Shown here piece after piece: positions 20,671 to 34,212 of a stretch of DNA of 64,000 nucleotides; the stretch's first letter is position 1, and the number at the start of each line of letters is the position of its first letter. The translations under genes were made by a program, and so were the position numbers. Below the pieces are notes generated by a model. It worked only from the letters and a program-made list of their open reading frames with translations. It ran no database searches and was not told the origin of the DNA. Origin of the DNA: Gemmobacter caeni (GTDB taxonomy: Bacteria > Pseudomonadota > Alphaproteobacteria > Rhodobacterales > Rhodobacteraceae); contig NZ_QBKP01000008.1 in assembly GCF_003054195.1 (NCBI RefSeq), positions 174,697-238,696 of the forward strand, in the 5' to 3' direction.

Positions 20671-20733
20671 GGTTGCCTCGCTGGTTATCTGGCCCTCTGG
20701 ATTCCGCCCGGCGCGCGGACGGTCACCGGAATG

Positions 20734-21267: not shown

Positions 21268-21295
21268 TTCCTTGCCCCTTTTTTCGATGCGCAGA

Positions 21296-21700
21296 TCAGT
21301 ATTTCTTGCCGCCCTCGGCTACCCGGTTCTGCAACTTGTGATCGGCGCGCTGCCGATTGTAGCGGTTCTTCTCGATCAGGGCGCCGGCAACATCGAGATT
21401 GAGAGCGGCGGCGGTGTCGAGGATACGCAGGATGCAGTCGGCAAACTCGACTTCGCGGCCATCGCGCCAATGCAGCTTGTCGTCCTTCGATCCCTTGCGG
21501 TCAGCTTCCAGAGCCTCGCTGAGTTCCGAATGCATCAAGGCGACAACTTCTCCGAAATTGCGCTCCACCTTCTCCCCGGTGGCAGGATCCGTGTACCATC
21601 CGGCATTCTTCGCCGTCTCGTGAGCGAGTTGCTGAAGCGCCTCGATGCCATTGTGAGCTTCGTTTTCGAGATGCGACATTTTCGGCGGGAAACGTGTCAT
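21296..21700 (-). CDS. MazG-like nucleotide pyrophosphohydrolase
   Basis: 134 residues (in-frame ATG at 21676 is an alternative start). VALMHSELSEALEADRKG supplies the ExxE helix and EFADCILRILDTAAALNLD supplies the ExxD helix of the MazG/all-alpha NTPase fold; these bind magnesium and hydrolyse (d)NTPs to (d)NMPs. In phages MazG may adjust dNTP or alarmone levels. Confidence 0.75.
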   Translation of the reverse strand: MTRFPPKMSHLENEAHNGIEALQQLAHETAKNAGWYTDPATGEKVERNFGEVVALMHSELSEALEADRKGSKDDKLHWRDGREVEFADCILRILDTAAALNLDVAGALIEKNRYNRQRADHKLQNRVAEGGKKY

Positions 21701-21748
21701 GCTGTGATGTCCTTTGTTGATGAAGGTGAAGTGCAGTTCAGCGACCGA

Positions 21749-21952
21749 TCACGTCTGCACCTCTGTCTCTTTCGGGACAAGGAACTCGCGCAGACTGTCG
21801 AGATCGAACATGTGCATTTCCTGCGGCACCTCGATCACGTTGCGAATGGTCTGCCGGGTGCCGGACTCGCTCTTCGCAGTCGGCCGGTCAGGCGAGGTGC
21901 GAGGCTGCCAGCGCCCGTAGATGTCTTTCTTTTCGTAATAGAACATGCTCAT
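21749..21952 (-). CDS. Unknown small phage protein
   Basis: 67 residues from ATG 21952, which overlaps the zinc-ribbon gene stop (ATGA). Sequence MSMFYYEKKDIYGRWQPR, then MHMFDLDSLREFLVP. A longer frame to 22114 lies within the upstream gene and is rejected. No domain known. Confidence 0.5.
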   Translation of the reverse strand: MSMFYYEKKDIYGRWQPRTSPDRPTAKSESGTRQTIRNVIEVPQEMHMFDLDSLREFLVPKETEVQT

Positions 21953-22143
21953 TCCTCGTTCCAAACGTCCTTGGCGACGGAAAGCGGAACTTCCGCTGTG
22001 GTGATCGAACGCAGACAGCTCCTGCACTGCTTGCGCCGCACGACGCACATGACGCCGTGAATGCTGCGCGGTCTCGATTCCAGCGTGGAAAATTTCTCGT
22101 GACCACATGCGCAAACTGCGGTGTGATTGTGGGCCTCGTTCAT
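21949..22143 (-). CDS. NrdR-like zinc-ribbon protein, lacking ATP-cone
   Basis: 64 residues from ATG 22143 with GGGGAAAAAG upstream. The order C-x-CGHEKF, then ESRP, VRRKQC-x-x-C, then TTAEV parallels the zinc ribbon of NrdR, the ribonucleotide reductase repressor (CPxCG, DSR, RRRRxCxxC, FTTxE). The ATP-cone domain that senses dATP in NrdR is missing. It could bind NrdR-type DNA boxes or interfere with NrdR. First gene of the leftward early operon. Confidence 0.55.
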   Translation of the reverse strand: MNEAHNHTAVCACGHEKFSTLESRPRSIHGVMCVVRRKQCRSCLRSITTAEVPLSVAKDVWNEE

Positions 22144-22179
22144 CTTTTTCCCCGAGGTATCGTTTTCTCTGAGATGCAA

Positions 22180-22472
22180 TTCTCAGGTGATTCTGCGCGC
22201 AAAGTCAAGTTTAATGTGATTTTCTCCGGGGGCTGATTTTCTCCGGGGTCCAGTCGGATGTGCTCGGCCTGATCGCATCGGATAAATCTGAATCCAGAAG
22301 GATTGAGATGGTGCCAGGGGCGAGAGGGGCTGCAGGTAGGTTGCGATGAGGCCCCAGGGCGTTATCGGGGAGGCGACGGGGCAGGAAGATTGTCACCGAT
22401 TGACACAACTTCAAAATCACGTTCAAATTGAGTTACAAGCCGAATCGAGGCGTTTACACAAAGGGGTTGACC
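22180..22472. promoter_or_regulatory. Divergent promoter region between leftward and rightward early operons
   Basis: About 290 bases without a gene. On the minus strand at 22224-22205 GAAAATCACATTAAACTTGA precedes a leftward promoter-like TTGACT. On the plus strand CAAAATCACGTTCAAATTGA lies at 22412-22431, followed by a segment (CAAGCCGAATCG) shared with the site at 26041. A 15-bp direct repeat TGATTTTCTCCGGGG occurs at 22217 and 22234. The layout resembles a phage early switch. No RNA gene seen. Confidence 0.5.
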
Positions 22473-22886
22473 ATGATTGACGATCAACTGAAGCGGGCTT
22501 TCCGGTGGCATATGCAGGAAGCGCGCGACCGGGAACAGAAGATCCAGCGGGGGCAGATTGCGGAATTTCCCGCCAAAGTGCAGCGTGACCGCGACGCCCT
22601 GATGCGCGGCAAAGCCGCCCGCGCATTGAATGATGCCCGCAACGATGTTGCCCAAGGTGTGAACCGCTATCCGGTCCCCCATGTGCCTTTCGGCGCCCGT
22701 GGCGGATACCGCGAAGATGCCGACGGGCTGCGCTATGTGCCTTTCGGCGCCCGTGGCGGATGGCGCGAAGAGGCCGACGGGCTGCGCTATGTTGGTCGTG
22801 TGAGTCCTGAGTTTCGCCGCGGTCCCTTCGGAGGGCGGGAATCCGAGGGCTGGCTGAATATTCCACTGGGTCCGACTGGACTCTGA
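22473..22886 (+). CDS. Unknown protein with 18-residue tandem repeat
   Basis: 137 residues from ATG 22473 (AAGGGG upstream; an in-frame upstream start at 22428 lies in the regulatory region). Helical, basic N-terminal half. Residues about 70-105 hold two copies of VPFGARGGxREx-ADGLRY, encoded by a nearly identical 54-bp duplication. The C-terminus is Gly/Arg-rich. Possibly a nucleic-acid-binding protein; no family recognised. Confidence 0.5.
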   Translation: MIDDQLKRAFRWHMQEARDREQKIQRGQIAEFPAKVQRDRDALMRGKAARALNDARNDVAQGVNRYPVPHVPFGARGGYREDADGLRYVPFGARGGWREEADGLRYVGRVSPEFRRGPFGGRESEGWLNIPLGPTGL

Positions 22887-22897
22887 GCTTCGATGCG

Positions 22898-23266
22898 GTG
22901 GAGGTTTGGACCAAGGCGGGCCGGGCCGAGTGTTCGGTGGATATTTCGCCCCGCTTCGCGCACCTGTATTTCCGGTTTGCCGATCCTGACCGGGCGAAAC
23001 CGTTCGATGCGCTCAATTTTCGCCTCAATCCTTGTTCCGGCAAATGGAACAACTTCGCCACCGCCGACGGTTGGCTGAAGGGCGGTAAACTGCACCCGGC
23101 AACTGCGCTTTCGGTCTTCATTGCCGAATGCCGCCGCGATTTCCGCAAGGTCGCAGAACCGAACCCGGATCCGGTCGAGGTTGCGGCCTATCGGGAAGCC
23201 GAGGCCGCCCGCGCCGCGCAGTGGGCGCAATATGTGGCCGAGATGCAAGCCGCGCCGCCCGTCTGA
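22898..23266 (+). CDS. Unknown protein, GTG start
   Basis: 122 residues. The frame stays open upstream into the previous gene with no usable start before GTG 22898, so the N-terminus is uncertain. Contains ISPRFAHLYFRFADPDRAKPFDALNFRLNP and KWNNFATADG, beta-rich. It is followed by further small genes that lead into the HerA-like ATPase gene. Confidence 0.5.
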   Translation: MEVWTKAGRAECSVDISPRFAHLYFRFADPDRAKPFDALNFRLNPCSGKWNNFATADGWLKGGKLHPATALSVFIAECRRDFRKVAEPNPDPVEVAAYREAEAARAAQWAQYVAEMQAAPPV

Positions 23267-23302
23267 ATTTCGACCCCCGCCCCTTTTCCCATGGAGTCCA
23301 AA

Positions 23303-23437
23303 ATGCACCCCGAAGACCTGACCCCGAAACAACGCCGCACCGCCGCGCGCCACTGGCAACGCCTGCAGGTGACGTTGCCGGGCATGGGCACCGGGCGCAT
23401 TTCGACCCGAAACCCGATCAAGGAGTCGCTGCAATGA
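23303..23437 (+). CDS. Small basic protein (44 aa)
   Basis: Read directly from the sequence: ATG 23303 with GGAG 6 bases upstream (in-frame ATG also at 23291), TGA at 23435-23437. Sequence starts MHPEDLTPKQRRTAARHWQR and is Arg-rich. Its stop overlaps the ATG of the next gene, and AAGGAG near its end serves that gene. Confidence 0.5.
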   Translation: MHPEDLTPKQRRTAARHWQRLQVTLPGMGTGRISTRNPIKESLQ

Positions 23438-23613
23438 TGAACCCCTGCGAAGCTGCCCACATTGTCACGATGCTGGATGAACCCGAACTGCTGTTGAACC
23501 CCGGCGAAGTGGCGCCGACCTATTCGCCCGAAGTCGAAGCCGAGGCGCGCAGGATCTGCGCCGAGGAATACAACAACTGGTTTTCCGAAACCTACGGCCA
23601 GTTGCCGAACTGA
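23434..23613 (+). CDS. Unknown small protein
   Basis: 59 residues from ATG 23434 (ATGATG pair, AAGGAG 8 bases upstream). A longer frame from 23128 runs antiparallel to nothing but overlaps two genes and is rejected. Acidic, helical: AHIVTMLDEPELLLNPGEVA, then EAEARRICAEEYNNWFSE. Function unknown. Confidence 0.5.
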   Translation: MMNPCEAAHIVTMLDEPELLLNPGEVAPTYSPEVEAEARRICAEEYNNWFSETYGQLPN

Positions 23614-23625
23614 AAGGGTGCCGTC

Positions 23626-23826
23626 ATGTGCGAGCTGCAATTCTGGAAGACCGAAGCCGAAGTTCTGGACTACATCCGCAGCGAATTTCTCGCTACGCTG
23701 AATGACGATCTGGAGCGCATGGAAGGGGCCGAGCGGCAACACTATGAGGATGAGGACCGCGAAGAGATGCGCGCCCGGATTGCCGATCTGGAATCCATCA
23801 TGCCGCGGCTGACGGTGACGCCGTGA
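23626..23826 (+). CDS. Acidic coiled-coil small protein
   Basis: 66 residues: FWKTEAEVLDYIRSEFLATL, then a charged helix (DLERMEGAERQHYEDEDREEM). The stop overlaps the start of the ATPase gene (GTGA), so the two are translated together, and it may be a partner of that ATPase. Confidence 0.5.
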   Translation: MCELQFWKTEAEVLDYIRSEFLATLNDDLERMEGAERQHYEDEDREEMRARIADLESIMPRLTVTP

Positions 23827-25013
23827 ACGGAATCCAACTGGCCCAGGGCGTCACTCTGCCGCTTTCCCATGCCTGCAAACATGCCCTTATCACTGGCGCA
23901 ACGGGGACCGGCAAAAGCACAACCGCGGGCGCCATGGTGGAAGGGCTGTCAGCCGCAGGCGTTCCGGTGCTGGTATTCGACGCGAAAGGCGACCTTGAGT
24001 CGCTGGGGGCGCGCGTCTGGTGCCCATTCGGCCAGCGCGGCGCGCATCGTGCAATCAATCTCGGGGCAGCTGGTGCCGATCTGGTGGCCCGCGCCCTGGA
24101 CCTGAGCCCGGCGCAATCCGGTGCCGTGGAAATTGTCGCGGCCTATGCCGAAGATAAAGGCTATGCTTTGGCCTGTCTCGACGATCTGCAAGCCGGGTTG
24201 CGAATCTGCACCGAACAGCGCGCCGCCGTATCCGCTCAATATGGCCTGTTTTCCCCTGCCAGCGCTGCCGCGGTTTCGCGTGCCATTCTGCCCCTGCGCC
24301 GCGCTATCGGTGACGCTTTCGGGTTGCCCGGTCTCGACCCTTTCGAAGCGGCTTCGGCGGGCGGGGTGACTGTTTACAGTTGCGGGCGTCTGGCACAGTA
24401 TCCGGGCGCCTATGCTGCCGCCGTGACCGCCTGCCTTTTGACGCTTTATCGTGATGCGGCCGAGCTGGGGCAGGTTGACCGCCCCGCGTTGGCGGTTCTG
24501 GTGGATGAAGCGCATTTGATATTTGACGGCGCGACTCCGGCGCTGGTGCGAAAGCTGGAACAGGTCGCTCGCCTGGTGCGGTCCCGTGGCGTGATGCTGA
24601 TTTTCGCCACGCAATCGCCCGCCGATCTGCCGCCCGTCATTTCTGCCCAGTTGATCACGCGAATCCAGCACGGACTCCGCGCCACCACGCCGGGCCAAGT
24701 CGCAGCGGTGCGGGCGGCAGCTATGGGGCTGCCGAGTGCAGGCGGCCGTGATCTGAGCGGCGAGATTCTGGCACTCGGGGTAGGGGAGGCGCTTTGCAGC
24801 GTGCCAGATATGCGAGGGCGACCGGGTGCCGCGGTGCGGGCGAAGATGCGCCGGGGCCGGATCGAACTTCGCCCGATCGAGGTGGCGCGGCCCGCCACTG
24901 TGCCGGTGGTCAAAGCGTTTCGGCCGGATCCGCCAGGCCCGTTGCCGGTGAAAGAGGATCGGGGATTGTGGCGCTTGCTCAATCCGATTGCGCGGCTTTT
25001 CGTGCGAATTTGA
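23823..25013 (+). CDS. HerA/TraC-like P-loop ATPase
   Basis: 396 residues. Walker A GATGTGKST at residues 25-33; VLVFDAKGDLESLG follows, typical of HerA/DUF853 proteins; Walker B LAVLVDEAH near residue 225; sensor region VMLIFATQSPADLPPVI near residue 258. The fold is that of hexameric DNA translocases (HerA-FtsK). HerA normally pairs with the NurA nuclease, which is absent here. Possible roles are DNA processing during replication or defence. GTG start overlapping the preceding acidic protein gene. Confidence 0.75.
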   Translation: MNGIQLAQGVTLPLSHACKHALITGATGTGKSTTAGAMVEGLSAAGVPVLVFDAKGDLESLGARVWCPFGQRGAHRAINLGAAGADLVARALDLSPAQSGAVEIVAAYAEDKGYALACLDDLQAGLRICTEQRAAVSAQYGLFSPASAAAVSRAILPLRRAIGDAFGLPGLDPFEAASAGGVTVYSCGRLAQYPGAYAAAVTACLLTLYRDAAELGQVDRPALAVLVDEAHLIFDGATPALVRKLEQVARLVRSRGVMLIFATQSPADLPPVISAQLITRIQHGLRATTPGQVAAVRAAAMGLPSAGGRDLSGEILALGVGEALCSVPDMRGRPGAAVRAKMRRGRIELRPIEVARPATVPVVKAFRPDPPGPLPVKEDRGLWRLLNPIARLFVRI

Positions 25014-25047
25014 ATTTCTCCGACCTGTGACTCTTTTTCTCTGGCCT

Positions 25048-25080
25048 GCCCCGGGTGACCGCGGCGGGCTTTTCGTTTTC
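25048..25080 (+). terminator. Weak terminator-like hairpin after the ATPase gene
   Basis: GCCC at 25048-25051 can pair with GGGC at 25066-25069 around a GC-rich loop, followed by TTTTCGTTTTC. The stem is short, so this is tentative. It stands between the ATPase gene and the tandem repeat array. Confidence 0.3.
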
Positions 25081-25108
25081 TCTGGCCTGAATTTCTCTGG
25101 CCCAGGTG

Positions 25109-26040
25109 CAGCCGATCACCGGATCGGGCAGCCGATCACCAGGTCGGGCAGCCGATCACCAGGTCGGGCAGCCGATCACCAGGTCGGGCAGCCGGTCACC
25201 AGATCGGGAAGCCGATCACCAGATCGGGAAGCCGATCACCAGATCGGGAAGCCGATCACCAGATCGGGCAGCCGATCACCAGGTCGGGCAGCCGATCACC
25301 AGGTCGGGCAGCCGATCACCAGATCGGGCAGCCGATCACCAGATCGGGCAGCCGATCACCAGGTCGGGCAGCCGATCACCAGATCGGGAAGCCGATCACC
25401 AGATCGGGCAGCCGATCACCAGGTCGGGCAGCCGATCACCAGATCGGGAAGCCGATCACCAGATCGGGCAGCCGATCACCAGGTCGGGCAGCCGATCACC
25501 AGATCGGGAAGCCGATCACCAGATCGGGAAGCCGATCACCAGATCGGGAAGCCGATCACCAGATCGGGCAGCCGATCACCAGATCGGGCAGCCGATCACC
25601 AGATCGGGAAGCCGATCACCAGATCGGGCAGCCGATCACCAGGTCGGGCAGCCGATCACCAGATCGGGAAGCCGATCACCAGATCGGGAAGCCGATCACC
25701 AGATCGGGAAGCCGATCACCAGATCGGGCAGCCGATCACCAGATCGGGAAGCCGATCACCAGATCGGGAAGCCGATCACCAGATCGGGAAGCCGATCACC
25801 AGATCGGGAAGCCGATCACCAGATCGGGAAGCCGATCACCAGATCGGGAAGCCGATCACCAGATCGGGAAGCCGATCACCAGATCGGGAAGCCGATCACC
25901 AGATCGGGAAGCCGGTCACCAGATCGGAAAGCCGGTCACCGGAGCGGGCAGCCGATCACCGGATCGGGCAGCCGGTCACCGGATCGGGCAGCCGGTCACC
26001 GGAGCGGGCAGCCGGTCACCGGAGCGGGCAGCCGGTCACG
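25109..26040. repeat. 46-copy 20-bp tandem repeat with internal dyad
   Basis: From 25111 the unit GCCGATCACCRGATCGGGMA repeats in exact 20-base register for 930 bases (46.5 units). Within each common unit CCGATC and GATCGG are inverted around ACCA, and each unit has one or two GATC sites. Variants: GGTCACC at the right end, and AGATCGGGAA, AGATCGGGCA or AGGTCGGGCA elsewhere. Open frames across it encode only a 20-residue periodic peptide because 20 is not a multiple of three and no stops occur. It may be a set of protein-binding sites (iterons) or a structured RNA source. Confidence 0.95.
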
Positions 26041-26075
26041 CAAAGTCACGTTTAACTTGACATTCAACCCGAATC
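26041..26075 (+). promoter_or_regulatory. Operator/promoter-like site before the small-gene cluster
   Basis: CAAAGTCACGTTTAACTTGA directly abuts the last 20-bp repeat and continues as TTGACATTCAACC then CGAATCG. TTGACA is a perfect -35 hexamer, but the -10 at 17 bases (CTTTCT) is poor, so an activator may be needed. It matches the site at 22412-22446 over about 35 bases. Confidence 0.5.
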
Positions 26076-26134
26076 GCCGCTTTCTTGTTGTCAGACAGAG
26101 ACACAAGCCGGGATGACCGGCGGAAAGGCTGACA

Positions 26135-26251
26135 ATGGGAATCGCTCAATACCTGCTGACCTGTGCCGCGCGTTGTGAAGCGCGGGGGATGATCTGCAAA
26201 GCTGCCGAATATAGGTCGCTTGCAGCAAAATTCGAGATGATGGAGGGTTGA
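26135..26251 (+). CDS. Small cysteine-containing protein (38 aa)
   Basis: Read directly from the sequence: ATG 26135, TGA 26249-26251. Sequence MGIAQYLLTCAARCEARGM, then a helix ending FEMMEG. GGAGGG near its end serves the next gene 4 bases beyond the stop. Short, so moderate confidence. Confidence 0.4.
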   Translation: MGIAQYLLTCAARCEARGMICKAAEYRSLAAKFEMMEG

Positions 26252-26255
26252 AGTA

Positions 26256-26549
26256 ATGAAAGAAATTATCAACATGCCCGGATATATGGGCAAGCCGTGG
26301 CAAGTCACCGGATACGCTAAATCCGGGCTGATTGTTCACAAGATGGGTGAAACATGGGTTGTTTCCCATATCGTGACCGGATGCCGCATCGGACCCGGAA
26401 CAAGACTCAAGCGCGATGCAATCGCTAAACGCGATAGCCTTCTCGGGCTGATAGACGACTGGACGGCGGAAAGCGTTGAGGCACTCGGAAAACAATATCC
26501 TGAGGGAACCCGCGCTTTTACCGATGCTGTCCGCTCAATCGCGTACTGA
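26256..26549 (+). CDS. Unknown small early protein
   Basis: 97 residues with GGAGGG upstream. N-terminal beta sheet (KPWQVTGYAKSGLIVHKMGETWVVSHI) and C-terminal helices (WTAESVEALGKQY). Base composition is more AT-rich than the tail or host genes, as in the rest of this cluster, suggesting separate acquisition. No family recognised. Confidence 0.5.
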   Translation: MKEIINMPGYMGKPWQVTGYAKSGLIVHKMGETWVVSHIVTGCRIGPGTRLKRDAIAKRDSLLGLIDDWTAESVEALGKQYPEGTRAFTDAVRSIAY

Positions 26550-26560
26550 GGGACAGAACA

Positions 26561-26779
26561 ATGGCTAAAGATGAATTGACCATTTGGCGCCTGACTTGGA
26601 GTCACGCCACCGGAGTTTATTGGCTTGGCATGCGGATCTGTCAGGCCAGCGACGCGGAATCTTGGTTGGATATTTTCCGCAAAAACGAAAGCGGCGTTAC
26701 TTTTGAAGCAAGCCGAAAGAAACCCGCTTTACCTGACAATGCGCGCCAAATGGCGCGCCATGTCGCAATGTTTCGCTGA
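26561..26779 (+). CDS. Unknown small early protein
   Basis: 72 residues, preceded by GAGGGACA. LTIWRLTWSHATGVYWLGMR and a helical end (DNARQMARHVAMF). One of five consecutive small genes with individual ribosome binding sites, a layout common in phage early anti-host regions. Function not known. Confidence 0.5.
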   Translation: MAKDELTIWRLTWSHATGVYWLGMRICQASDAESWLDIFRKNESGVTFEASRKKPALPDNARQMARHVAMFR

Positions 26780-26791
26780 TAGGGGGATGGG

Positions 26792-27202
26792 ATGAAAACT
26801 AGCGTCACAAATAAATTCACGACTGGCCATTATGGCTTGCGCGATACTTTCGACATACCAGAGGGGACTCCGGTCATCTTCGGCGCGCCGGATTGTGAGG
26901 GGAAGCCTTTCCCCCATTGGACTCTTTCGGTTGAAACGGCCGCACAGCTTTCCGGGAATCTGCATGACTCCGCGCATCGCTTTGTCGTCGTGCATCCCGA
27001 TCACGTCACGCCGGCTGACGGTGACGGATACGCTGCACAATTGGCTTATAGCCGGTCACAGCTGCCAACGCTGGCCGAAGTCAGATCCAAGGCGCGACGC
27101 GAAAAGAGGGAAATTGTCGAACGCGTGCTAATGGCAAATGACTCCGTTGCATGCATCAAAGCCGGGCCGCGCGGTGGCCTGAAAATTCTTGGCCGGTTCT
27201 GA
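26792..27202 (+). CDS. Unknown early protein
   Basis: 136 residues. Beta-rich N-terminus (GHYGLRDTFDIPEGTPVIFG, then HWTLSVETAAQLSG) and basic C-terminal helix (AEVRSKARREKREIVERVL). GGGGGATGGG-type ribosome binding site just upstream. No family recognised. Confidence 0.5.
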   Translation: MKTSVTNKFTTGHYGLRDTFDIPEGTPVIFGAPDCEGKPFPHWTLSVETAAQLSGNLHDSAHRFVVVHPDHVTPADGDGYAAQLAYSRSQLPTLAEVRSKARREKREIVERVLMANDSVACIKAGPRGGLKILGRF

Positions 27203-27214
27203 GGAGTCCATACC

Positions 27215-27406
27215 ATGAAACCCGACAACTGGGGCGAAGGCTACCAAGCCGGACTCACTGGCCTGACCTATGACGACAACCCGCACAAGGCGGAACCGGC
27301 CGGAATGGCATGGGCTTTCGGATGCGGCGAAGGCATGAAGGAACGGAACCGGCTGGCGTTTGCCGCTATCATGTCAGCGCTGCAGGAACAGGCGAAGCCG
27401 GAATGA
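27215..27406 (+). CDS. Ribosome modulation factor-like small protein
   Basis: 63 residues. WGEGYQAGLTGLTYDDNPHKAEPAGMAWAFGCGEG follows the RMF pattern (GYxAGxxGxxxxxNPY, then WxxGWxxG). Host RMF pairs 70S ribosomes into inactive dimers. Phage and plasmid RMF-like proteins occur, but ribosome binding has not generally been shown. AGGAG precedes the ATG. Confidence 0.55.
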   Translation: MKPDNWGEGYQAGLTGLTYDDNPHKAEPAGMAWAFGCGEGMKERNRLAFAAIMSALQEQAKPE

Positions 27407-27675
27407 CCGCCGTCAGCTACACGGCCGCCCATATCGGCCGCGACGGCGCGACGCTGAGCAGCTCAGGAAGCCGGTTCACATGCAGCGCGGCGTTGCGCAG
27501 CTGGATCCGTAACCAGTGCCAGATTGCGGGTTTTCCTGCAAATGCCAGGCGCCAAGTCTGCACGCTGACCCTGTGGCGCAACATTCGGGCAGGGCACGCG
27601 GAGTCTTTCACAATCCGAAACTACCAGCCCGGTCGCGTTAGCGCGATCCACTTCACCGGAGTCCGTCACTCTTGA
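27403..27675 (+). CDS. Unknown small early protein
   Basis: 90 residues from ATG 27403, overlapping the RMF-like stop (ATGA). Ser/Thr/Arg-rich, beta-type sequence (FTCSAALRSWIRNQCQIAGF, then RQVCTLTLWRNIRAG). A longer frame from 27310 is a shadow of the preceding gene. Unknown function. Confidence 0.5.
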   Translation: MTAVSYTAAHIGRDGATLSSSGSRFTCSAALRSWIRNQCQIAGFPANARRQVCTLTLWRNIRAGHAESFTIRNYQPGRVSAIHFTGVRHS

Positions 27676-27730
27676 CGTGCAGGCGGAACACCTAGAGCCT
27701 TTACCAGGGCTAGAGACCTAAGGGGGAAAA

Positions 27731-27976
27731 ATGTCTTCACTCAAAAAATTCAACGTAACTCTCGACGGCGTTACGCTTGGTCAGGTTAATGCCATGTATT
27801 CGCATCCCGCCTGGCCTGACTACGCCGCGGCGGTTCACATGATCCCTGCGCGCAAGAGGCAAATGTATAGCCGCCGCATTCCGACGTATGACGGCCGCCT
27901 GAGTCTGACAATCCAGATGACCAACAGCCGCGGCAAAATTTCCGGGCAGGTGAAATTTGTGCCTGTTGAAGAGTAA
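27731..27976 (+). CDS. Unknown small early protein, last of the cluster
   Basis: 81 residues with GGGGG 5 bases before ATG. FNVTLDGVTLGQVNAMYSHPAW, then RRIPTYDGRLSLTIQMTNS, a beta-rich compact protein. Its stop codon is followed within 4 bases by the hairpin and CRISPR-like array. Confidence 0.5.
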   Translation: MSSLKKFNVTLDGVTLGQVNAMYSHPAWPDYAAAVHMIPARKRQMYSRRIPTYDGRLSLTIQMTNSRGKISGQVKFVPVEE

Positions 27977-27979
27977 AGC

Positions 27980-28004
27980 GGCCGCCCACAATGAAGGGGC
28001 GGCC
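27980..28004 (-). terminator. 8-bp perfect hairpin at the end of the mini-array
   Basis: GGCCGCCC (27980-27987) and GGGCGGCC (27997-28004) pair perfectly around a 9-base loop. Read leftward, as an end to a minus-strand RNA, it is followed by GCTTTACTC, a weak T tract. It directly abuts repeat 1 of the mini-array. Confidence 0.4.
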
Positions 28005-28089
28005 TATCCCCGCGTGGGCGGGGAACGCATATCTCCCTCACAAGAGGAACCCCGATAGTGAGGGTCATCCCCGCGTGAGCGGGGAACAT
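28000..28089 (-). CRISPR. Two-repeat type I-E-like CRISPR mini-array, one 32-bp spacer
   Basis: Two copies of the core ATCCCCGCGTG-R-GCGGGGAAC (28006-28026 and 28067-28087) lie exactly 61 bases apart, which is the 29+32 unit of type I-E arrays. The 29-base repeats (28000-28028, 28061-28089) agree at 22 of 29 positions; both keep the CCCCGC/GCGGGG stem with GTGG or GTGA loop. Compared with type I-E repeats the sense strand would be the minus strand. The 3' ends that form the crRNA handle differ from each other and from the usual ATRAACCG. The intervening 32 bases can pair with repeat 2 through CCCTCAC/GTGAGGG. No cas genes are in the window. Confidence 0.65.
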
Positions 28090-28093
28090 CAAC

Positions 28094-28121
28094 AGGATAC
28101 ATAATGGCGACATATCGTCAA
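28094..28121 (-). promoter_or_regulatory. Leftward promoter-like sequence for the mini-array
   Basis: Minus strand: TTGACG at 28121-28116, 16-base spacer, TATCCT at 28099-28094. The expected start, 6-7 bases on, falls at about 28087, the first base of repeat 2. This would make an RNA of about 110 bases: repeat, spacer, repeat, hairpin. Confidence 0.4.
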
Positions 28122-28149
28122 CAGAAATACAAATAACATCACCAGCATA

Positions 28150-28176
28150 GGGCGCCGCAAGGCGCCTTTATCTTTT
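28150..28176 (+). terminator. Intrinsic terminator of the rightward small-gene operon
   Basis: GGCGCC (28151-28156), GCAA loop (GNRA tetraloop), GGCGCC (28161-28166), then TTTATCTTTT. A clean Rho-independent terminator 175 bases after the last small gene, beyond the mini-array. Confidence 0.75.
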
Positions 28177-28225
28177 GACCTGTGACCGGCCGCCCTGTGA
28201 TCTGGGGCGGCCGTTTGCATTTGTG

Positions 28226-28431
28226 GTGCTGCTCTGCTGCCCTGCGAGGTGCTGCCCTGCTGCCCTGCGTGGTGCTGCCCTGCTGCCCTGCTGCCCTGCG
28301 TGGTGCTGCCCTGCTGCCCTGCGTGGTGCTGCCCTGCTGCCCTGCGTGGTGCTGCCCTGCTGCCCTGCGTGGTGCTGCCCTGCGAGGTGCTGCTCTGCTG
28401 CCCTGCGAGGTGCTGCTCTGCTGCCCTGTGA
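28226..28431. repeat. GCTGCCCT/GCGTGGT low-complexity tandem repeat
   Basis: Blocks GCTGCCCT and GCGTGGT (or GCGAGGT) alternate, often as a 23-base unit GCTGCCCTGCGTGGTGCTG-CCCT, for about 200 bases. Open in several frames but all predicted peptides are CCPA-type periodic and not credible. It lies just after the terminator; function unknown. Confidence 0.85.
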
Positions 28432-29240
28432 TCGGATGCAAGCAGGGGGATTGTGCGCGTTGCGTGCATCCTGGCGCCGATTGATCTGGATTCACCTGTA
28501 ACACATTGATCTGAATGCGCTTTCCGTGCATCTGGCTTTGGGTCCTTCCGGTGGCGGGTGACGGGATGCGGGCAGCCCCGACCCCGATTCATGCACCTGT
28601 TCAATTTTTCCCTAGTAAAACATCAAGTAAAACAATGCCTTACACCTAAACTAAACCGTATAGTTTACTTGCAATGTTATAATATAACAAACTGAACCGT
28701 TTAGTTTAGTTTCCGGTCACCCGATGCGTTGCAGTCCGAGGTCGGGGTAGGGCTGCGAAAGCATGTGTTTTCAGGAGATAAGTCGCACACGACAGAATTT
28801 TCGGAATCAGGGGAGAAGATGCATTTAAATCGACCACGGTTGGGCTTTATGCCGAAATCACGAGGGTAAACAGAGTAGTCAGAGTGTAGACAGGTAGAGT
28901 AGTCATGTTAAGTCTTTGTTTTTACAGTTGAAGTCTCATATTCTACTCTGTCTAGTCTATTGTCTAAGGAAGCAACGTAATAAGGGCAAAGTGTTTTATA
29001 TCAACCGGGCATATAATGCCGACCAGTGGTCGGGATAAAAACACCCCTGTACGTATACTATATAAGAAGGGGGTGTAGGCATGTAGTAAGAGTAGCCAAT
29101 CGTTTTTTTTGTATAAAATTCAATAACTTAACCTGACTACTCTAGTGGCTACACCCGTGGCTACTCCCAGCAGACTAGTCGGCCTGATTGGAAACGCAGG
29201 CAACGGTGGATTGATTTATGTGAATGATCGACTTGAAACG
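28432..29240. promoter_or_regulatory. Long AT-rich noncoding control region, possible replication origin
   Basis: About 800 bases with no credible gene. Contains two copies of a 19-bp near-palindrome AAACTRAACCGTWTAGTTT (28648-28666 and 28689-28707) 41 bases apart around a TATAAT; a perfect 15-bp palindrome CCGACCA-G-TGGTCGG (29019-29033) just after another TATAAT; AGAGTAGTC at 28872 and 28896 and inverted at 29135; and ACACCCC/GGGGTGT arms near 29040-29076. It precedes the primase-helicase end and lies where replication genes turn, so an origin or switch is plausible. Confidence 0.5.
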
Positions 29241-29266
29241 AAAAAACCCGACGCGATGCGCCGGGT
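29241..29266 (-). terminator. Intrinsic terminator of the primase-helicase gene
   Basis: Read leftward: ACCCGGCGC, loop ATC, GCGTCGGGT (one mismatch), then TTTTTTCGTTTC. It lies 44 bases past the stop codon of the leftward primase-helicase gene and is a strong Rho-independent terminator. Confidence 0.8.
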
Positions 29267-29309
29267 GTAATTCAGATCAATGATGCGTTTAGATCAATCT
29301 TAGATATTA

Positions 29310-31808
29310 TCACAGATCTAAGATTTCGGTCACATTCAAAGAATACCCGTCTCTGACGTACAGCCTTTGTCTGCCGTACTTCTTCGTTCTGATCTGATAT
29401 TTAGAGACACGCTGCCACCCCGGAACCCGGTTTATCGCAGTGCCGATCTTGACCGCAGAAGCCTGATCCAGTTCTCCGATCTTCCGACCCATCATCCCGA
29501 TCCAGATATCCGCGACGCAGGTGACGTTCCGCAGGCTTTGCGGTGCGCTCGGGTCAAGATCATCAGAACCTTCTGCCGGCCCCGTGGGCTCGTTCAGCCA
29601 CGCCTCGATCTGCCCGGAAAGGGTATCGGCCACCGTCTCGACACGCCGGCTTTCCTGAAGCTCTTTTGCCTCACGCTTCGCGTCGTCGTGCTGGAGGTAA
29701 AGGGGCAGGTTCCGCTTTTTGCACGTCCTGCGCATCTCGACATAAATTTGATAGGCTTCCGCCCAAACCTGGTCGATCACGCTTTCGAGCTTATCCGTGT
29801 CGATATCCACGTCATCAGGCAGCTGGCACTTGATCGGCCAGAAGCGACGGCCCCCGGTATGGTCCCGCAGATATTCGTCATCATTGGTGCTGCCGAGGAA
29901 GACGCATTGACGCTGGAAGATCTGCGCTCGGCGGGCATAGGCCATTCGCACCTTGTCGAACGTGGCCGAGATGAAGCCCTTGAGCACGTTGGTATCCGCC
30001 CGGCTGAAGCCCTGCAGTTCCGGTATCTCGATGATCCATGCACCCTGAATCTGCTCGACCATCTGCTGCCGGTTATGGAAGTCTCCGCTCAGCTCTGCGA
30101 ACCACATCGAGCGGCCGAGAATGCTGATGAAGGTAGACTTCCTCTTGCCCTGCAATCCTTCCAGGATCGGCACGAAATCGAACTTGTGCCCGGGTTCCAT
30201 GACGCGGGCGACTGCGCCAACAAGGATCAGCCTCGCGGCCTCCCGATGGTAGGGTGTGTCGTCGCATCCGAGGAAGTCGACAAACAGCTGATCTGCGCGC
30301 GACTGACCGTCCCATTCGAGAGACTGAAGATACGCGCGTACCGGGTGGAAGCGCATGTTGTTCGCCACGATATCCACCGCGGCTTTCATATCGCGATCGG
30401 TGACCTTGAACCCGTAACCGCCCTGACCCTTGGGCGCCTCGACGACAAGCCGAAGACCCTGATCGTGGGAATCAGTCCAGAGGTGCCCATTCACGGGGTC
30501 AGATACGCGCCAAATCTCCGAATCGAGGTTCAGGACCGGCTTCGCGCTGTCCCGTTTCTTTGACACCCTCTTGGGCTCGTTGATCAGCACCGCCTCGCTC
30601 GTGAACTCATTCAGGGCGAGGATGCCGTGGCATCGAACATCGTTCTGCAGCACGAGTTTGATGTTGTGGAGGGTCGATGTGGGTTGCCCGTCGTCATTTC
30701 TGGTCAGATAGCTGGTCCAGTTTTCGTCGATCTCGGGGGCTTTGGGTGCGATATCGGGCGGCGCTGCTGCGCCGAGCAACGACATCAGCTCGTCGTCATA
30801 GGCAGAATCAGCTACGACTGCCGGCAAGTTGCGCTGCAACCGGGCTTCGTTCGCCGCCTGAATCACAGTGCGAAAGGTGACCGGCCGAAGGTCTCCCTTG
30901 AAGGATTTCCAGACCGATTTCTGGGTCTTCGGGTCATATTTTGCCGACTGCTTTGACCATTCGCACCAGAGATCGAAGCCTTTTTGGCCACCCTGATACT
31001 GATGGTGCAGTGCTGAGCCGAGCGTGACCCAGGTATCCCGGTCCTCTACCCAGTTTTCCGGCAGATCTTGTACTGCCTTTTCGACTTCTTCGTCTGAAAT
31101 GTCGACTGGCGCGGTGCGCAGTTCGCGGATGAGGTCGTCTTCGTCATCATCGAATGGATTTTCGTCAGAAACGACCTTTGCGCCCCATTTTTCGACCGTT
31201 TCCGACGAAATTGCGTCAAAAATACCCATTTCGAGGCTGAAAAAGTCAAAAGGACGCTCCCAAACGTAGGCGAGGCCGGTATCCGGGTGGATGCTCGGGG
31301 GGATGACCGCATAGGAACCAGTGCCGAGCAGGTCGATTTCCCAGTGGTTTTTCTTCACATCCCGGTTCTTCGACGGGTCAAAAACCATCGAATATCCGTC
31401 TGATTTTGCCAGTTTTCGCTTGGAAAACGGCTTGTCGGTGACGAACCAGATGTGGCGAGAATGTCCGCCCGATCCGCTGATCACCGAGGGGAAGGTTTCC
31501 CACTGCGGAAACAGATCGGACAGGGCTTTGCGAGCCTCGTCGGCCAGATCAGCGTTGCGAATGTCCAGGTCGATGATGTGGATGAAACCGAAAGGCGTGG
31601 CCGAGGGCTGTCCGAGACGGATACCGACGTTTGATTCAGGCAGATAGGACCGTCGAAGCGCATCCAGATCAGGTCTCGGTTGCGATGACCACTCAGCCTG
31701 CCTGGGGTTTTTCCGCCTCGGCTGCAGCCACATGAGACAAGCCCCGTTCCCGATCAAACCGGAACAGGCAGACAGGACGCTCTCAAGCGTCAGGGACGTA
31801 TCCGTCAT
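29310..31808 (-). CDS. Primase-polymerase / VapE-type helicase replication protein
   Basis: 832 residues. Residues about 20-200 are a prim-pol domain (GFIHIIDLDIRN with catalytic Asp pair; SGSGGHSRHIWF; WEIDLLGTGSYAVIPPSIH). Residues about 245-320 resemble PriCT-2 (TWVTLGSALHHQYQGG). Residues about 480-740 are a VapE-family superfamily 3-like helicase with Walker A LEGLQGKRKST and Walker B WIIEIPEL, followed by FLGSTNDDEYLRD. It would prime and unwind at the phage origin. Faces away from the rest of the replication genes and is preceded by a small HTH gene. Confidence 0.85.
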   Translation of the reverse strand: MTDTSLTLESVLSACSGLIGNGACLMWLQPRRKNPRQAEWSSQPRPDLDALRRSYLPESNVGIRLGQPSATPFGFIHIIDLDIRNADLADEARKALSDLFPQWETFPSVISGSGGHSRHIWFVTDKPFSKRKLAKSDGYSMVFDPSKNRDVKKNHWEIDLLGTGSYAVIPPSIHPDTGLAYVWERPFDFFSLEMGIFDAISSETVEKWGAKVVSDENPFDDDEDDLIRELRTAPVDISDEEVEKAVQDLPENWVEDRDTWVTLGSALHHQYQGGQKGFDLWCEWSKQSAKYDPKTQKSVWKSFKGDLRPVTFRTVIQAANEARLQRNLPAVVADSAYDDELMSLLGAAAPPDIAPKAPEIDENWTSYLTRNDDGQPTSTLHNIKLVLQNDVRCHGILALNEFTSEAVLINEPKRVSKKRDSAKPVLNLDSEIWRVSDPVNGHLWTDSHDQGLRLVVEAPKGQGGYGFKVTDRDMKAAVDIVANNMRFHPVRAYLQSLEWDGQSRADQLFVDFLGCDDTPYHREAARLILVGAVARVMEPGHKFDFVPILEGLQGKRKSTFISILGRSMWFAELSGDFHNRQQMVEQIQGAWIIEIPELQGFSRADTNVLKGFISATFDKVRMAYARRAQIFQRQCVFLGSTNDDEYLRDHTGGRRFWPIKCQLPDDVDIDTDKLESVIDQVWAEAYQIYVEMRRTCKKRNLPLYLQHDDAKREAKELQESRRVETVADTLSGQIEAWLNEPTGPAEGSDDLDPSAPQSLRNVTCVADIWIGMMGRKIGELDQASAVKIGTAINRVPGWQRVSKYQIRTKKYGRQRLYVRDGYSLNVTEILDL

Positions 31809-31819
31809 TACCGTGCCCC

Positions 31820-32107
31820 TTACTTCAGGAGAAACGGTGTAAGATCAACGTCTTTCAGGGGCTTGCGCTTCGTGCCCGTGGGTTTTGCTTCTGAAAGTTC
31901 CAGCAGCTTCTTCGCGTTCGACGGCGAAACACGCTCATTGCGGAACATCTGATAGAGGGTCTGCGTTCTGCGACCCATCGCCTCAGCGAGCAGCGTCACT
32001 GAGAGGCGCCCGTACTCGTGAAACTCGGGCAGCCGCTCCGAAATCAGGGCGAACAGCGCAGTTTCCCGGTAATCGAGACCTTTAGGCTTACGCCCGGCCT
32101 TGCTCAT
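31820..32107 (-). CDS. Small HTH DNA-binding protein
   Basis: 95 residues from ATG 32107. GRLSVTLLAEAMGRRTQTLYQMFRNERVSPSNAKKLLELSE is a Cro/CI-like helix-turn-helix. It lies 11 bases before the primase-helicase gene, and a copy of the CAAAATCACG-N6-TTGA motif lies in its promoter at 32181-32162. It may repress its own operon or assist origin recognition. Confidence 0.7.
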   Translation of the reverse strand: MSKAGRKPKGLDYRETALFALISERLPEFHEYGRLSVTLLAEAMGRRTQTLYQMFRNERVSPSNAKKLLELSEAKPTGTKRKPLKDVDLTPFLLK

Positions 32108-32266
32108 GGGTGTGGTCCTTCTTGCTTGCACCGGCACACTAGCATCCCGCTGATGGCAAAATCAACCGTTTCGTGATTTTGTGCAATTTATACTTGAGGC
32201 GAGGCGGGCAATGTGTTTATGATTGGTTCATTCAAGACGACCATCAACCACCGCCAGGGGAACACT
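32108..32266. promoter_or_regulatory. Divergent promoter region with shared operator motif
   Basis: The minus strand holds CAAAATCACG-AAACGG-TTGATT (32181-32160) with TAGTGT about 18 bases beyond as a possible -10. On the plus strand TATACT at 32189-32194 may be the -10 for the rightward gene. Similar motif copies are at 13922 (minus), 22412 and 26041. Confidence 0.45.
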
Positions 32267-32797
32267 ATGCCTGCATTGGAAGACCTTACCGCTGCGCTGA
32301 CTGCGAACACCGCGGAGATCCAGCGCCTCACCGCCATCACCGAAAAGCTGCTCGCAGTCCGCACCGACGCGATCGAGACCGTGAAATCGGCTGCGGCTCC
32401 GGTCGACAAGCCCGCGACCTCGAAGAAGACCGAAAAGCCGGCTGAAACCGCTGCCGCCTCGGCCGAAGAGAAACCGCAGCCCGCTTCTGCGCCGCCGAAA
32501 ATCACCATCGACGAGCTGAACGCGATCATTTCGGGCGAGAAGAAAGCCAGCGATGACGACATGCGCGCCATGGGCGCCTTCTATGTCACCTTCGGCGGCA
32601 CCGACACCGATCCCGTTCCGCAGGACGAGGCCAAGCGCCGCATGGCGACCGTCCGCACCGAGATCCTCGCTCACCCGAAGATCAAGGCCGAGACCATGGC
32701 GACGGTGCCCGAGAACATGCGCAAGGCCGCTGCGAAGAAGATCGGTGACCTGATCGCGGCGATCTCGGCACCCGCAGCCGATCCCGACGAACTCTGA
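32267..32797 (+). CDS. Unknown protein with Ala/Lys/Pro linker
   Basis: 176 residues from ATG 32267 (AGGGGAA upstream). Short N-terminal coiled coil (LTAALTANTAEIQRLTAITEKLL), a low-complexity linker (about 45-80), and a helical C-terminal domain beginning KITIDELNAIISGEKK. Ends in acidic DPDEL. First gene of the replication module; perhaps an accessory DNA-binding protein. Confidence 0.55.
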   Translation: MPALEDLTAALTANTAEIQRLTAITEKLLAVRTDAIETVKSAAAPVDKPATSKKTEKPAETAAASAEEKPQPASAPPKITIDELNAIISGEKKASDDDMRAMGAFYVTFGGTDTDPVPQDEAKRRMATVRTEILAHPKIKAETMATVPENMRKAAAKKIGDLIAAISAPAADPDEL

Positions 32798-32821
32798 TCC
32801 AGGAATCAAGGAAAACGTGAA

Positions 32822-33031
32822 ATGCAACTTTCCGACAAGCAGCTTTCCGCACTTCGCGCCGTCCGCACGGGTGGCCTCATGCCGATCATCCACGCCGGGG
32901 CGCTGAGCGACGCCGGTCTCGTCGAGAAGCTGAAGGGCCAGCACGCCTTCGGCTCGAAGCGGGGATACTCGGCGGTCATCGCCACGCAGGCCGGCAAGGC
33001 GAGGCTCGACGCGAGCAGCGACGAACTTTGA
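32822..33031 (+). CDS. Unknown small phage protein ending SSDEL
   Basis: 69 residues. QLSDKQLSALRAVRTGGLMP, then a helix and GYSAVIATQAGKARLD; this looks like a small winged-helix fold, where GYSAVI-T is the wing. AAGGAAAACGTGAA precedes the ATG. Confidence 0.5.
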   Translation: MQLSDKQLSALRAVRTGGLMPIIHAGALSDAGLVEKLKGQHAFGSKRGYSAVIATQAGKARLDASSDEL

Positions 33032-33049
33032 TCGGCTTGAATGACTGTC

Positions 33050-33173
33050 GGTGCCTCGAAAGGGGCACCCTCAGCGATGCTCGCTCCCTGCCTTTGCTGC
33101 CTGGGGGTGGGTCAACAGAAGTCCGGCTTTCGGGGAAGTCGGTCGGATTTCAGAGCGAGCATCGCTGAGGGTG
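33050..33173 (+). promoter_or_regulatory. Structured leader: 21-bp perfect inverted repeat over a ribosome binding site
   Basis: 33066-33086 is perfectly complementary to 33153-33173 (21 bases), enclosing a 66-base loop. The 3' arm holds GAGGG (33167-33171), the ribosome binding site of the GTG start at 33178. A shorter hairpin, GGTGCC (33050-33055) with GGCACC (33064-33069), shares bases 33066-33069 with the 5' arm, so the two structures exclude each other, as in translational attenuators. Confidence 0.7.
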
Positions 33174-33177
33174 TCAG

Positions 33178-33723
33178 GTGACTGCGAAGATCGAATGGGA
33201 AAACGAAGACCTGGCCAGAAAATTCGCTGGCGAAGGCTATTCGGTCGCGGACGCAGCACGGCTCTGCAATGAGAAGTTCGATCTGTTTCGTTCGAGAGCG
33301 AGGCGGAGAGGAATAGTCTTCACGGAACGACCGGAGATGACCTTGGCGAAGCATCAGATCCGCAGCCTTGTTGAGGGAATGAAAACCGCCGAGGCTGTTG
33401 ATTTCTTGCTCAACTACATAGAACTCAATGATCGGGCACACGATCCGCACGAAGTTGCGCTTCATATCCGTGATTTTGGCCTGACTCCGAAAGAAGCGCA
33501 GCTTTTCGCAATCCTGTTCGAGAAACCTGGCAGGGTGTTTGACAAAGAGCACCTTCTGTCGCGGCTTTATCCGAACCCTGACGATTATGCGGTCAGCAAG
33601 ATCATCGACGTTTATGTCTGCAAGATCAGGAAGAAGCTGAAAGACGCATGGCATCCCGGCGAGATCAAAACGCAATGGGGACTCGGGTATTACTACGAAA
33701 AGGCGAAAGAGGATGCGCGCTAA
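33178..33723 (+). CDS. OmpR-type winged-helix regulator without receiver domain
   Basis: 181 residues, GTG start. N-terminal residues 5-45 look like a GcrA-type HTH (EDLARKFAGEGYSVADAARLC). Residues about 100-178 match the PhoB/OmpR effector domain: GLTPKEAQLFAILFEKPGRVFDKEHLLSRLYP, then SKIIDVYVCKIRKKLK and KTQWGLGYYYE. No receiver domain, so not phosphorylation-controlled. Possibly a phage transcription activator or a competitor of CtrA-type regulators. Its translation is probably controlled by the leader hairpin. Confidence 0.65.
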   Translation: MTAKIEWENEDLARKFAGEGYSVADAARLCNEKFDLFRSRARRRGIVFTERPEMTLAKHQIRSLVEGMKTAEAVDFLLNYIELNDRAHDPHEVALHIRDFGLTPKEAQLFAILFEKPGRVFDKEHLLSRLYPNPDDYAVSKIIDVYVCKIRKKLKDAWHPGEIKTQWGLGYYYEKAKEDAR

Positions 33724-34093
33724 TAAGCATTTCCTCGAACGCTGTCAGCAGCGCGGCATCACGAGAACCAATACGCAAACCCTTTATAGGGAGCTTGTTA
33801 AAGCGTGCTCTGATCCTGTGAAATATGCGGACTTCGTGGAGTTTGTTGTCCGGGGCCTGACACCGGAGGATCGCGGATTTTACCGTTTCCGGGTCGAAGA
33901 AGGCGTATTTTATGCCTTTGTGAAAGCTGACGGGACGCCTGTAACCGTGGTCGATGGTCGGCAGATCAATATGCACAAGCTGCGTGCAAAAGGGCGCCGT
34001 ATTCCGCGAGGGGCATGGGAAGAGATGGATGTTCTCGGAACATCCGTAAAGGGGAAGCGCAAGTTCTCCAAAAGGCAAAGGGGAGCAGTGTGA
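33713..34093 (+). CDS. Unknown phage protein
   Basis: 126 residues, starts inside the end of the regulator gene. KHFLERCQQRGITRTNTQTLYRELVKAC, then a beta region (FYRFRVEEGVFYAFVKADGTPVTVVDG) similar in layout to small RelE/BrnT-like or DUF4258 folds, but no catalytic set is clear. Basic C-terminus. Confidence 0.5.
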   Translation: MRANKHFLERCQQRGITRTNTQTLYRELVKACSDPVKYADFVEFVVRGLTPEDRGFYRFRVEEGVFYAFVKADGTPVTVVDGRQINMHKLRAKGRRIPRGAWEEMDVLGTSVKGKRKFSKRQRGAV

Positions 34094-34212
34094 GCGTGTT
34101 TCTGGACTTCTACACCCATTCGTTCTGGACGTGGCTCGGGCTGAATCTCGGCATCTACACCGTTTTTATCGGCATCGCGATGGTAGTTGCTGCTTTCAGG
34201 GGTGGAAAATGA
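34090..34212 (+). CDS. Small single-pass membrane protein (40 aa)
   Basis: GTG at 34090 overlapping the upstream stop (GTGA), GGGGAG 5 bases upstream. One membrane helix: WTWLGLNLGIYTVFIGIAM, then VVAAFRGGK. Stop overlaps the next ATG. Unknown function. Confidence 0.5.
   Translation: MSVFLDFYTHSFWTWLGLNLGIYTVFIGIAMVVAAFRGGK

What the first reader, a model, noticed from the sequence alone, without database searches (positions are those of the whole stretch)
27978..28121. Phage-borne type I-E-like CRISPR mini-array with its own promoter-like sequence
Two hairpin repeats of the type I-E kind lie exactly 61 bases apart (29+32), in a prophage without cas genes. On the crRNA-sense (minus) strand, TTGACG-16-TATCCT would start transcription at the first base of repeat 2, and an 8-bp hairpin closes the unit, giving an RNA of about 110 bases. 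The 3' handle of both repeats deviates from canonical forms, and the handle of repeat 2 can pair with the spacer (CCCTCAC/GTGAGGG). Phage solitary repeat units are known RNA anti-CRISPRs (Racr) that capture Cas proteins; mini-arrays can also target rival phages. This copy sits behind a cluster of tiny early genes and may be a decoy or a superinfection-exclusion guide.
Basis: partly seen in the sequence, partly recalled or inferred. Interest (0 to 1): 0.82.

Follow-up and report, generated by a model that had tools for sequence, protein, structure and literature searches.

The report
Prophage copies host's CRISPR-guard antitoxin RNA
A dormant phage carries a near-exact copy of a guide sequence that sits inside its host's own CRISPR locus, a guide predicted to make the CRISPR complex silence a built-in toxin, so the phage would likely use its copy to tie up that defence without setting the toxin off.

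Summary
It matches, 28 of 29 nt, the guide of a degenerate mini-array inside the host's own complete type I-E cas locus, between cas3 and cas8e. Just downstream of that host unit lies a partly matching site with an AAG PAM and a full seed match. Sixteen cas8e upstream regions (this host and 15 other loci), with different sequences, show the same guide/PAM/target layout; 13 of them also carry a ribosome-binding site and a very short ORF rich in the rare codons AUA and AGA (0 of 500 shuffles reach this). That is the anatomy of CreTA, the CRISPR-repressed toxin-antitoxin RNA pair. The phage has the antitoxin guide (CreA) without target or toxin. The 66-kb prophage (att repeats at a tRNA-Met) is itself matched 32/32, with AAG PAM, by a spacer of the host's array. 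Best reading: a CreA-mimic RNA anti-CRISPR that occupies Cascade while keeping the guard toxin off. Expression, toxicity and inhibition are untested, only this one phage shows it, and CreR-like repression of the cas genes is the main rival.

The parts
28061..28089 (-). first repeat of the phage unit (psiR1-like), ATGTTCCCCGCTCACGCGGGGATGACCCT; near-canonical stem, predicted 5' handle ATGACCCT
   Evidence: 4 of 29 mismatches to the host's array repeat, 9 of 29 to the host psiR1
28029..28060 (-). guide (spacer), CACTATCGGGGTTCCTCTTGTGAGGGAGATAT; copy of the creA-like guide in the host cas locus
   Evidence: 28 of 29 nt equal to L022:8461-8489; at most 3 mismatches in 1 of 394 family genomes, this one, at two places
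28000..28028 (-). second repeat of the phage unit (psiR2-like), GCGTTCCCCGCCCACGCGGGGATAGGCCG; handle deviates, no PAM and no target behind it
   Evidence: 7 of 29 mismatches to the host psiR2
28094..28121 (-). promoter-like site TTGACG-16-TATCCT in front of the unit
   Evidence: 9 of 12 matches; 0.4 expected; weak
27980..28004 (-). hairpin that closes the unit, possible terminator (overlaps the end of the second repeat)
   Evidence: fold; no long T run, not listed as a minus-strand terminator
46417..46439 (+). attR, 23-bp copy of the 3' end of the tRNA-Met at C8:154951-154973 (attL)
1..46439 (.). part of the 66-kb prophage that lies in the window (whole prophage C8:154951-221135; window = C8:174697-238696)

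Best explanation
The prophage carries a copy of the guide of a creA-like gene in its host's cas locus, between repeats of the same kind, and this RNA would likely be processed by the host's Cas6e and loaded into Cascade, occupying the complex while steering it to the host site that is predicted to keep the CRISPR-guard toxin CreT silent. Shown by sequence: the host has a complete type I-E locus; between cas3 and cas8e lie psiR1, guide and psiR2, then an AAG PAM and a partly matching target, a TTGACA box, a ribosome-binding site with the mini-ORF GTG CAT AAA ATA CCC TGA, and a terminator-like hairpin; the phage has guide and both repeats but no PAM, target or mini-ORF; a host spacer matches the same prophage 32/32 with an AAG PAM. 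Inferred: transcription of the phage unit, Cas6e processing, loading, repression at the target, toxicity of the mini-ORF RNA, and starvation of the array's crRNAs. Why it would pay: a decoy that takes Cascade away should release CreT; a decoy that is itself CreA should not.
For: Guide copy: 28/29 nt, a 69-nt block at 93%, in 1 of 394 family genomes. Target: guide core with positions 6, 9 and 12 left open fits without mismatch at exactly three places of the 5.1-Mb genome: phage guide, host guide, host target C34:8520-8536 with AAG. Layout conserved: 12 of 75 cas8e upstream regions have a psiR1-like end, seed match and PAM, shuffled guides give 0.01; looser search 16 of 75 against 11 of 1500 shuffles. 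Toxin-like part: 13 of 16 leaders have a ribosome-binding site and mini-ORF, all 137-178 nt from the target; 500 shuffles give 2.1 on average, at most 6; AUA 8 and AGA 4 of 59 inner codons, against 0.8 and 0.4 per 1000 in 11 longer ORFs. Published CreT and creA features agree (PMC8501985, PMC9458426). Need for an anti-CRISPR: spacer 39 matches the tape-measure gene of the same prophage, with cas genes matched over most of their models.
Against: One phage and one host; no second phage found, and the two other genomes searched for a second copy of their own guide had none. No RNA or activity data. The phage promoter is weak. In this host the TTGACA box lies 54 nt from the target start, against 17-39 nt in the 12 other loci that have one, and no promoter was flagged on that strand. 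The host mini-ORF has one AUA, published CreT ORFs have two consecutive rare codons. A terminator-like site follows the mini-ORF in only 4 of 12 loci examined, this host among them. Tolerance of the self-matching prophage could be due to a protein anti-CRISPR or to silent cas genes.
Confidence: 0.55

Rival explanations
1. Phage-borne CreR: the same RNA-guided binding, but the promoter that is hit drives the cas8e-cas2 operon, so the phage lowers cas expression by adding more of the host's own autorepressor.
For: CreRs are reported for types I-B, I-E and V-A, acting by partial promoter complementarity (PMC13131331 passage). The target lies 293 bp upstream of cas8e. In 8 of 12 loci no terminator-like site was found between the mini-ORF and cas8e.
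Against: The conserved ribosome-binding site and rare-codon mini-ORF are not needed for a CreR, and in this host an 11-bp stem with a T run stands between mini-ORF and cas8e.
Confidence: 0.25
2. Plain Racr-like decoy: the repeats alone capture Cas6e/Cas7e, the guide is irrelevant.
For: Solitary repeat units in phages and plasmids inhibit type I-E, I-F, I-C and V-A systems (PMC10651486 passages and Discussion).
Against: Two repeats and a 5' handle are kept, and the guide is a copy of the host's own and keeps the seed match to the host target. The RacrIF1 subcomplex lacks Cas5 and Cas8 because that RNA has no 5' handle.
Confidence: 0.1
3. Passive relic: a creA fragment was captured by recombination and does nothing.
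For: The shared block is 93% identical throughout, so selection on the guide alone is not shown; the Fisher test guide against repeats gave p 0.025 and was set aside for that reason. Only one phage carries it.
Against: The first repeat is nearer to the canonical repeat (4 of 29 mismatches) than the host psiR1 is (7 of 29), both stems are intact, and the prophage lives with a perfectly matching spacer.
Confidence: 0.08
4. Superinfection guide: the spacer aims host Cascade at a competing phage.
For: Viral mini-arrays with such spacers are described (PMC11656645 passages; PMC6858448, listing and start of abstract only).
Against: The guide matches host cas DNA; the near-exact pattern occurs in IMG/VR only in a copy of the same prophage.
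Confidence: 0.02

Closest known systems
CreTA, CRISPR-regulated toxin-antitoxin RNA pair (Li 2021, not read; PMC8501985, PMC9458426)
   Same: Two degenerate repeats around a guide that partly matches a promoter region with PAM; psiR1 keeps the 5' handle, psiR2 loses it; downstream mini-ORF with rare Ile or Arg codons.
   Different: The phage unit has the antitoxin half only, in trans, on a mobile element, with a near-canonical first repeat; the host module is type I-E and its mini-ORF has a single AUA.
CreR, cas-regulating RNA (Liu 2023, not read; PMC13131331 and PMC12737573 passages)
   Same: crRNA-like RNA from the cas locus that represses through Cascade by partial promoter complementarity.
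   Different: CreR is host-encoded and represses cas genes; here a phage carries the copy and the site is followed by a toxin-like mini-ORF.
Racr, RNA anti-CRISPRs (PMC10651486)
   Same: Prophage-encoded small RNA that resembles host CRISPR repeats; type I-E examples were tested there.
   Different: Racrs are solitary repeats that build dead-end subcomplexes; this unit has two repeats, a 5' handle and a guide aimed at the host.
Pseudo-ToxI of phage phiTE (PMC3475682, abstract)
   Same: A phage RNA that mimics, or was taken from, the host's antitoxin RNA to escape a suicide system.
   Different: ToxI neutralises a protein toxin directly; CreA acts through Cascade on a promoter.
Viral CRISPR mini-arrays for inter-virus conflict (PMC11656645 passages; PMC6858448 listing)
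   Same: Array without cas genes that uses host-type repeats.
   Different: Most of their spacers match related viruses; this one matches the host cas locus.

Membership tests
CreTA (host module, L022:8432-8790) | creA inside a cas locus: two diverged repeats around a spacer-like guide, psiR1 keeping and psiR2 losing the 5' handle | tested here: met
   definition from PMC9458426 and PMC8501985
CreTA (host module, L022:8432-8790) | guide partly complementary to a creT promoter, with PAM | tested here: inconclusive
   PAM AAG, seed match and 15 of the first 18 positions met; TTGACA box present but 54 nt from the target start, no promoter flagged on that strand
CreTA (host module, L022:8432-8790) | CreT RNA that is toxic when Cascade is lost | not testable with these tools
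   only the anatomy: ribosome-binding site, mini-ORF with one AUA, hairpin
CreA (phage unit as a member) | guide matches the creT-side target with PAM, and repeats suited to Cas6 and Cas5 | tested here: met
   16 of the first 18 positions, mismatches at 6 and 9; stems and handle kept
CreA (phage unit as a member) | linked to a creT and a cas locus | tested here: not met
   no target or PAM behind the unit and the cas locus is on another contig; so a mimic that works like CreA, not a CreTA module
CreR | represses the cas operon promoter | not testable with these tools
   target lies 293 bp upstream of cas8e; transcript ends unknown
Racr | solitary repeat unit without guide or 5' handle | tested here: not met
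   two repeats, guide and handle
Racr | inhibits CRISPR-Cas by taking up Cas proteins | not testable with these tools
   needs an experiment; the lysogen with a self-matching spacer is indirect support
Inter-virus mini-array | spacer matches another virus | tested here: not met
   at their sensitivity; the match is to the host

The most novel reading that the evidence does not exclude
A dual-action RNA anti-CRISPR: the phage feeds the host's Cascade the one guide that fills the complex and at the same time holds down the toxin meant to punish Cascade loss, so a single stolen antitoxin RNA defeats both CRISPR and its guard and lets the prophage live in a host whose array matches it perfectly.
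Probability: 0.45. Interest if true: 0.92.

Novelty: new variant of a known kind. Interest (0 to 1): 0.82.

Why it matters
CreTA is described as a guard that punishes elements that disable Cascade. A phage that carries the antitoxin guide would show how that guard is beaten, joining RNA anti-CRISPRs, antitoxin mimicry and CRISPR-regulated toxins in one RNA of about 110 nt. It also gives a search rule: look for phage mini-arrays whose guide matches the gap upstream of cas8. Besides, the comparison indicates that creA/creT-like modules recur in type I-E loci, most of them Rhodobacteraceae (16 of 75 upstream regions here). The literature searches made here (open-access PMC only, listings) showed no paper on a phage-borne CreA or CreR; the two founding papers on CreTA and CreR are not in that library's answers and were not read.

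Tried and rejected
Superinfection guide: no phage target found. A second phage with the same trick: 109 guides (this prophage's own included) from 37 viral loci against 79 cas8e upstream regions: this prophage scores 14 of 15 with AAG; the others with a PAM reach 11-12, those without a PAM up to 14. 41 single-guide units from 96 viral loci: next best with a PAM 12. The primase found one other viral relative (48%) without repeats on its 11-kb stretch, and 1 other of 198 family genomes (37%, part of the protein). The host creA region: 1 of 11 genus genomes, this one. Plasmid records: no match for either unit. Known anti-CRISPR proteins: 10 small ORFs against NCBIfam, none.

Results that weaken the reading: the reversed control of the genome pattern had more loose matches (32 with up to 2 mismatches) than the pattern itself (14), so only its three perfect matches count, and its open positions 6, 9 and 12 were chosen from the guide-target comparison. 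The six-base pairing rhythm is only partly there: among the 12 loci identity is 3 at position 6, 6 at 12 and 5 at 18, but also 7 at 9 and 6 at 15. One search scored 40 of 73 candidates, so other partial self-matches may be missed.

Rows dropped: one search kept 80 of 83 relatives. L100 and L137 were not used; L087, L091 (arrays) and L098, L122 (too short) were left out, giving 75. In one search 16 of 75 scored 12 or more; L108 was dropped (no repeats beside it) and L113 (score 11, full layout) added, giving the 16. One search repeats the test without that choice. A Fisher test of guide against repeats (p 0.025) was set aside, because the shared block is 93% identical throughout.

Full report
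WHAT IS THERE. On the minus strand 28089-28000 is repeat, 32-nt guide, repeat, with a promoter-like site in front (28121-28094) and a hairpin behind (27980-28004). The repeat pair is not chance (0.01 expected).

ONE PROPHAGE. A 23-bp exact repeat, the 3' end of a tRNA-Met at C8:154951-154973, recurs at window 46417-46439. An integrase lies beside the left copy. Between them are large terminase and portal, neck and tape measure, tail proteins, endolysin and primase/helicase, exonuclease and DNA polymerase. Length about 66 kb. Beyond the right end are genes with oxidoreductase/AIRS and hydantoinase domains. The IMG/VR contig IMGVR_UViG_2596583642_000003 (L051, L155) is the same prophage: over 2.7 kb the only difference is a 23-nt length change, in a tandem-repeat stretch.

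THE HOST SYSTEM. Contig C34 carries repB, repC, cas3, cse1 (cas8e), cse2, cas7, cas5, cas6e, cas1 and cas2, the cas proteins matched over most of their models, and an array of 61 repeats, mostly CTGTTCCCCGCACACGCGGGGATGAACCG.

THE GUIDE IS THE HOST'S. Between cas3 (stop codon 8454-8456, inside psiR1) and cas8e (8813) lie psiR1 8432-8460, guide 8461-8491, psiR2 from 8492, AAG 8517-8519 and a target from 8520. Phage and host guides agree at 28 of 29 positions; the units share a 69-nt block at 93%. The one change within those 29 is at guide position 12 and makes the phage guide equal to the target there. With positions 6, 9 and 12 left open, the first 17 nt fit without mismatch at three places of the genome: phage guide, host guide, host target. 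With up to 3 mismatches the 26-nt guide occurs in 1 of 394 family genomes, this one, at the phage and host units.

THE LAYOUT IS GENERAL. Of 75 usable cas8e upstream regions, 23 have a psiR1-like end and 12 of these have a seed match (1-5, 7, 8) behind an AAG or ATG PAM; shuffled guides give 0.01 per replicate. Sixteen regions were looked at in full: PAM AAG in 14, ATG in 2; identity 5/16 at position 6, 10 at 9, 15 at 10, 16 at 11, 7 at 12, 13 at 13, 13 at 14, 9 at 15, 13 at 16, 13 at 17, 6 at 18, 10 at 19, then about 4. Position 6 was free in all searches, and its dip fits a type I-E Cascade, which flips out every sixth base (recalled); 12 and 18 dip too, but so do 9 and 15 more mildly, so the rhythm is suggestive only. 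The pairing ends after about 20 positions, as expected of a guide that binds without cutting. TTGAC lies within 90 nt of the target start in 13 of 16.

A TOXIN-LIKE MINI-ORF. In 13 of 16 a ribosome-binding site and an ORF of 2-13 codons (start included) lie 137-178 nt from the target start; 500 dinucleotide shuffles give 2.1 on average and at most 6, and none reaches 8 AUA codons. AUA makes up 8 and AGA 4 of 59 inner codons, against 0.8 and 0.4 per 1000 in 11 longer ORFs of this genome. Published CreT toxins sequester tRNA-Ile(CAU) or rare tRNA-Arg with such mini-ORFs (PMC8501985), and published creA genes have a psiR1 that keeps and a psiR2 that loses the 5' handle (PMC9458426). I therefore call the host module CreTA-like; toxicity is not shown, and its ORF has one AUA where the published ones have two rare codons in a row.

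WHAT THE PHAGE TOOK. Guide, both stems and the handle; its first repeat is nearer to the array repeat (4 of 29 mismatches) than the host psiR1 is (7 of 29). No PAM, target or mini-ORF follows. That is an antitoxin guide without its toxin.

WHY IT WOULD PAY. Spacer 39 of the array matches the tape-measure gene of this prophage, 32 of 32 with AAG. It was the only full-length spacer match in the window, C8:150000-174700 and C34 outside the array (60 spacers plus the 3' flank) and among the scored candidates of the whole genome (40 of 73). It lies behind 38 leader-proximal spacers, so it is probably old and the prophage probably entered against existing immunity (inference). A decoy that removes Cascade should release CreT; a decoy that is CreA should not. 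I commit to this mechanism at 0.55; CreR-like repression of cas genes gets 0.25.

LIMITS. One phage, one host, no RNA or activity data; promoter evidence is weak on both sides; a protein anti-CRISPR or silent cas genes could explain the tolerated spacer match. Other viral two-repeat units with a deviating second handle exist (L059, L160, L186, L187, L195), but their hosts are unknown here.

LITERATURE SEEN. PMC10651486: passages and Discussion; PMC11656645, PMC12737573, PMC13131331, PMC12948488, PMC10097628: passages; PMC9458426: abstract and two sections; PMC8501985: passages and Discussion; PMC3475682: abstract and outline; PMC6858448: listing. Li 2021 and Liu 2023: not read.

Noticed in passing
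L198 (IMGVR_UViG_3300050510_000334), reverse strand about 6150-6320; L183 (IMGVR_UViG_3300043783_000043), about 835-1030: 2 of 41 single-guide viral mini-arrays have a PAM-flanked, partly matching target on their own contig right beside the array, at or in the next phage ORF: phage mini-arrays that may aim Cascade at the phage's own gene.
   Followed up: partly
L186 (IMGVR_UViG_2784746772_000003), about 290-530: Viral contig with three diverged type I-E-like repeats, a deviating last handle and two guides that both begin with TGCT, in front of an ORF; creA-like layout, host unknown.
   Followed up: no
L121, about 1560-2120: The creA-like guide and target lie in front of what looks by eye like a longer, helix-turn-helix-like protein ORF instead of a clear mini-ORF (alignment); may be a protein-toxin variant.
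   Followed up: no
window 24988-26116 and 28220-28430: Two tandem-repeat stretches; the first runs through long ORFs with a repeated GQPITRSGSRSPDRAADHQ motif, the second is a 23-base repeat whose length differs from the IMG/VR copy.
   Followed up: no
window 53827-59867: Two adjacent minus-strand ORFs with ResIII and N6/N4 DNA methylase domains: likely a restriction-modification pair just outside the prophage.
   Followed up: no
window 27215-27406: 63-aa phage ORF with weak similarity to ribosome modulation factor (E 6e-4, below the curated cut-off).
   Followed up: no
L022 (C34) 3573-5930: repB and repC plasmid genes directly in front of cas3: the CRISPR-Cas locus and its creA-like unit probably sit on a repABC plasmid.
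   Followed up: no
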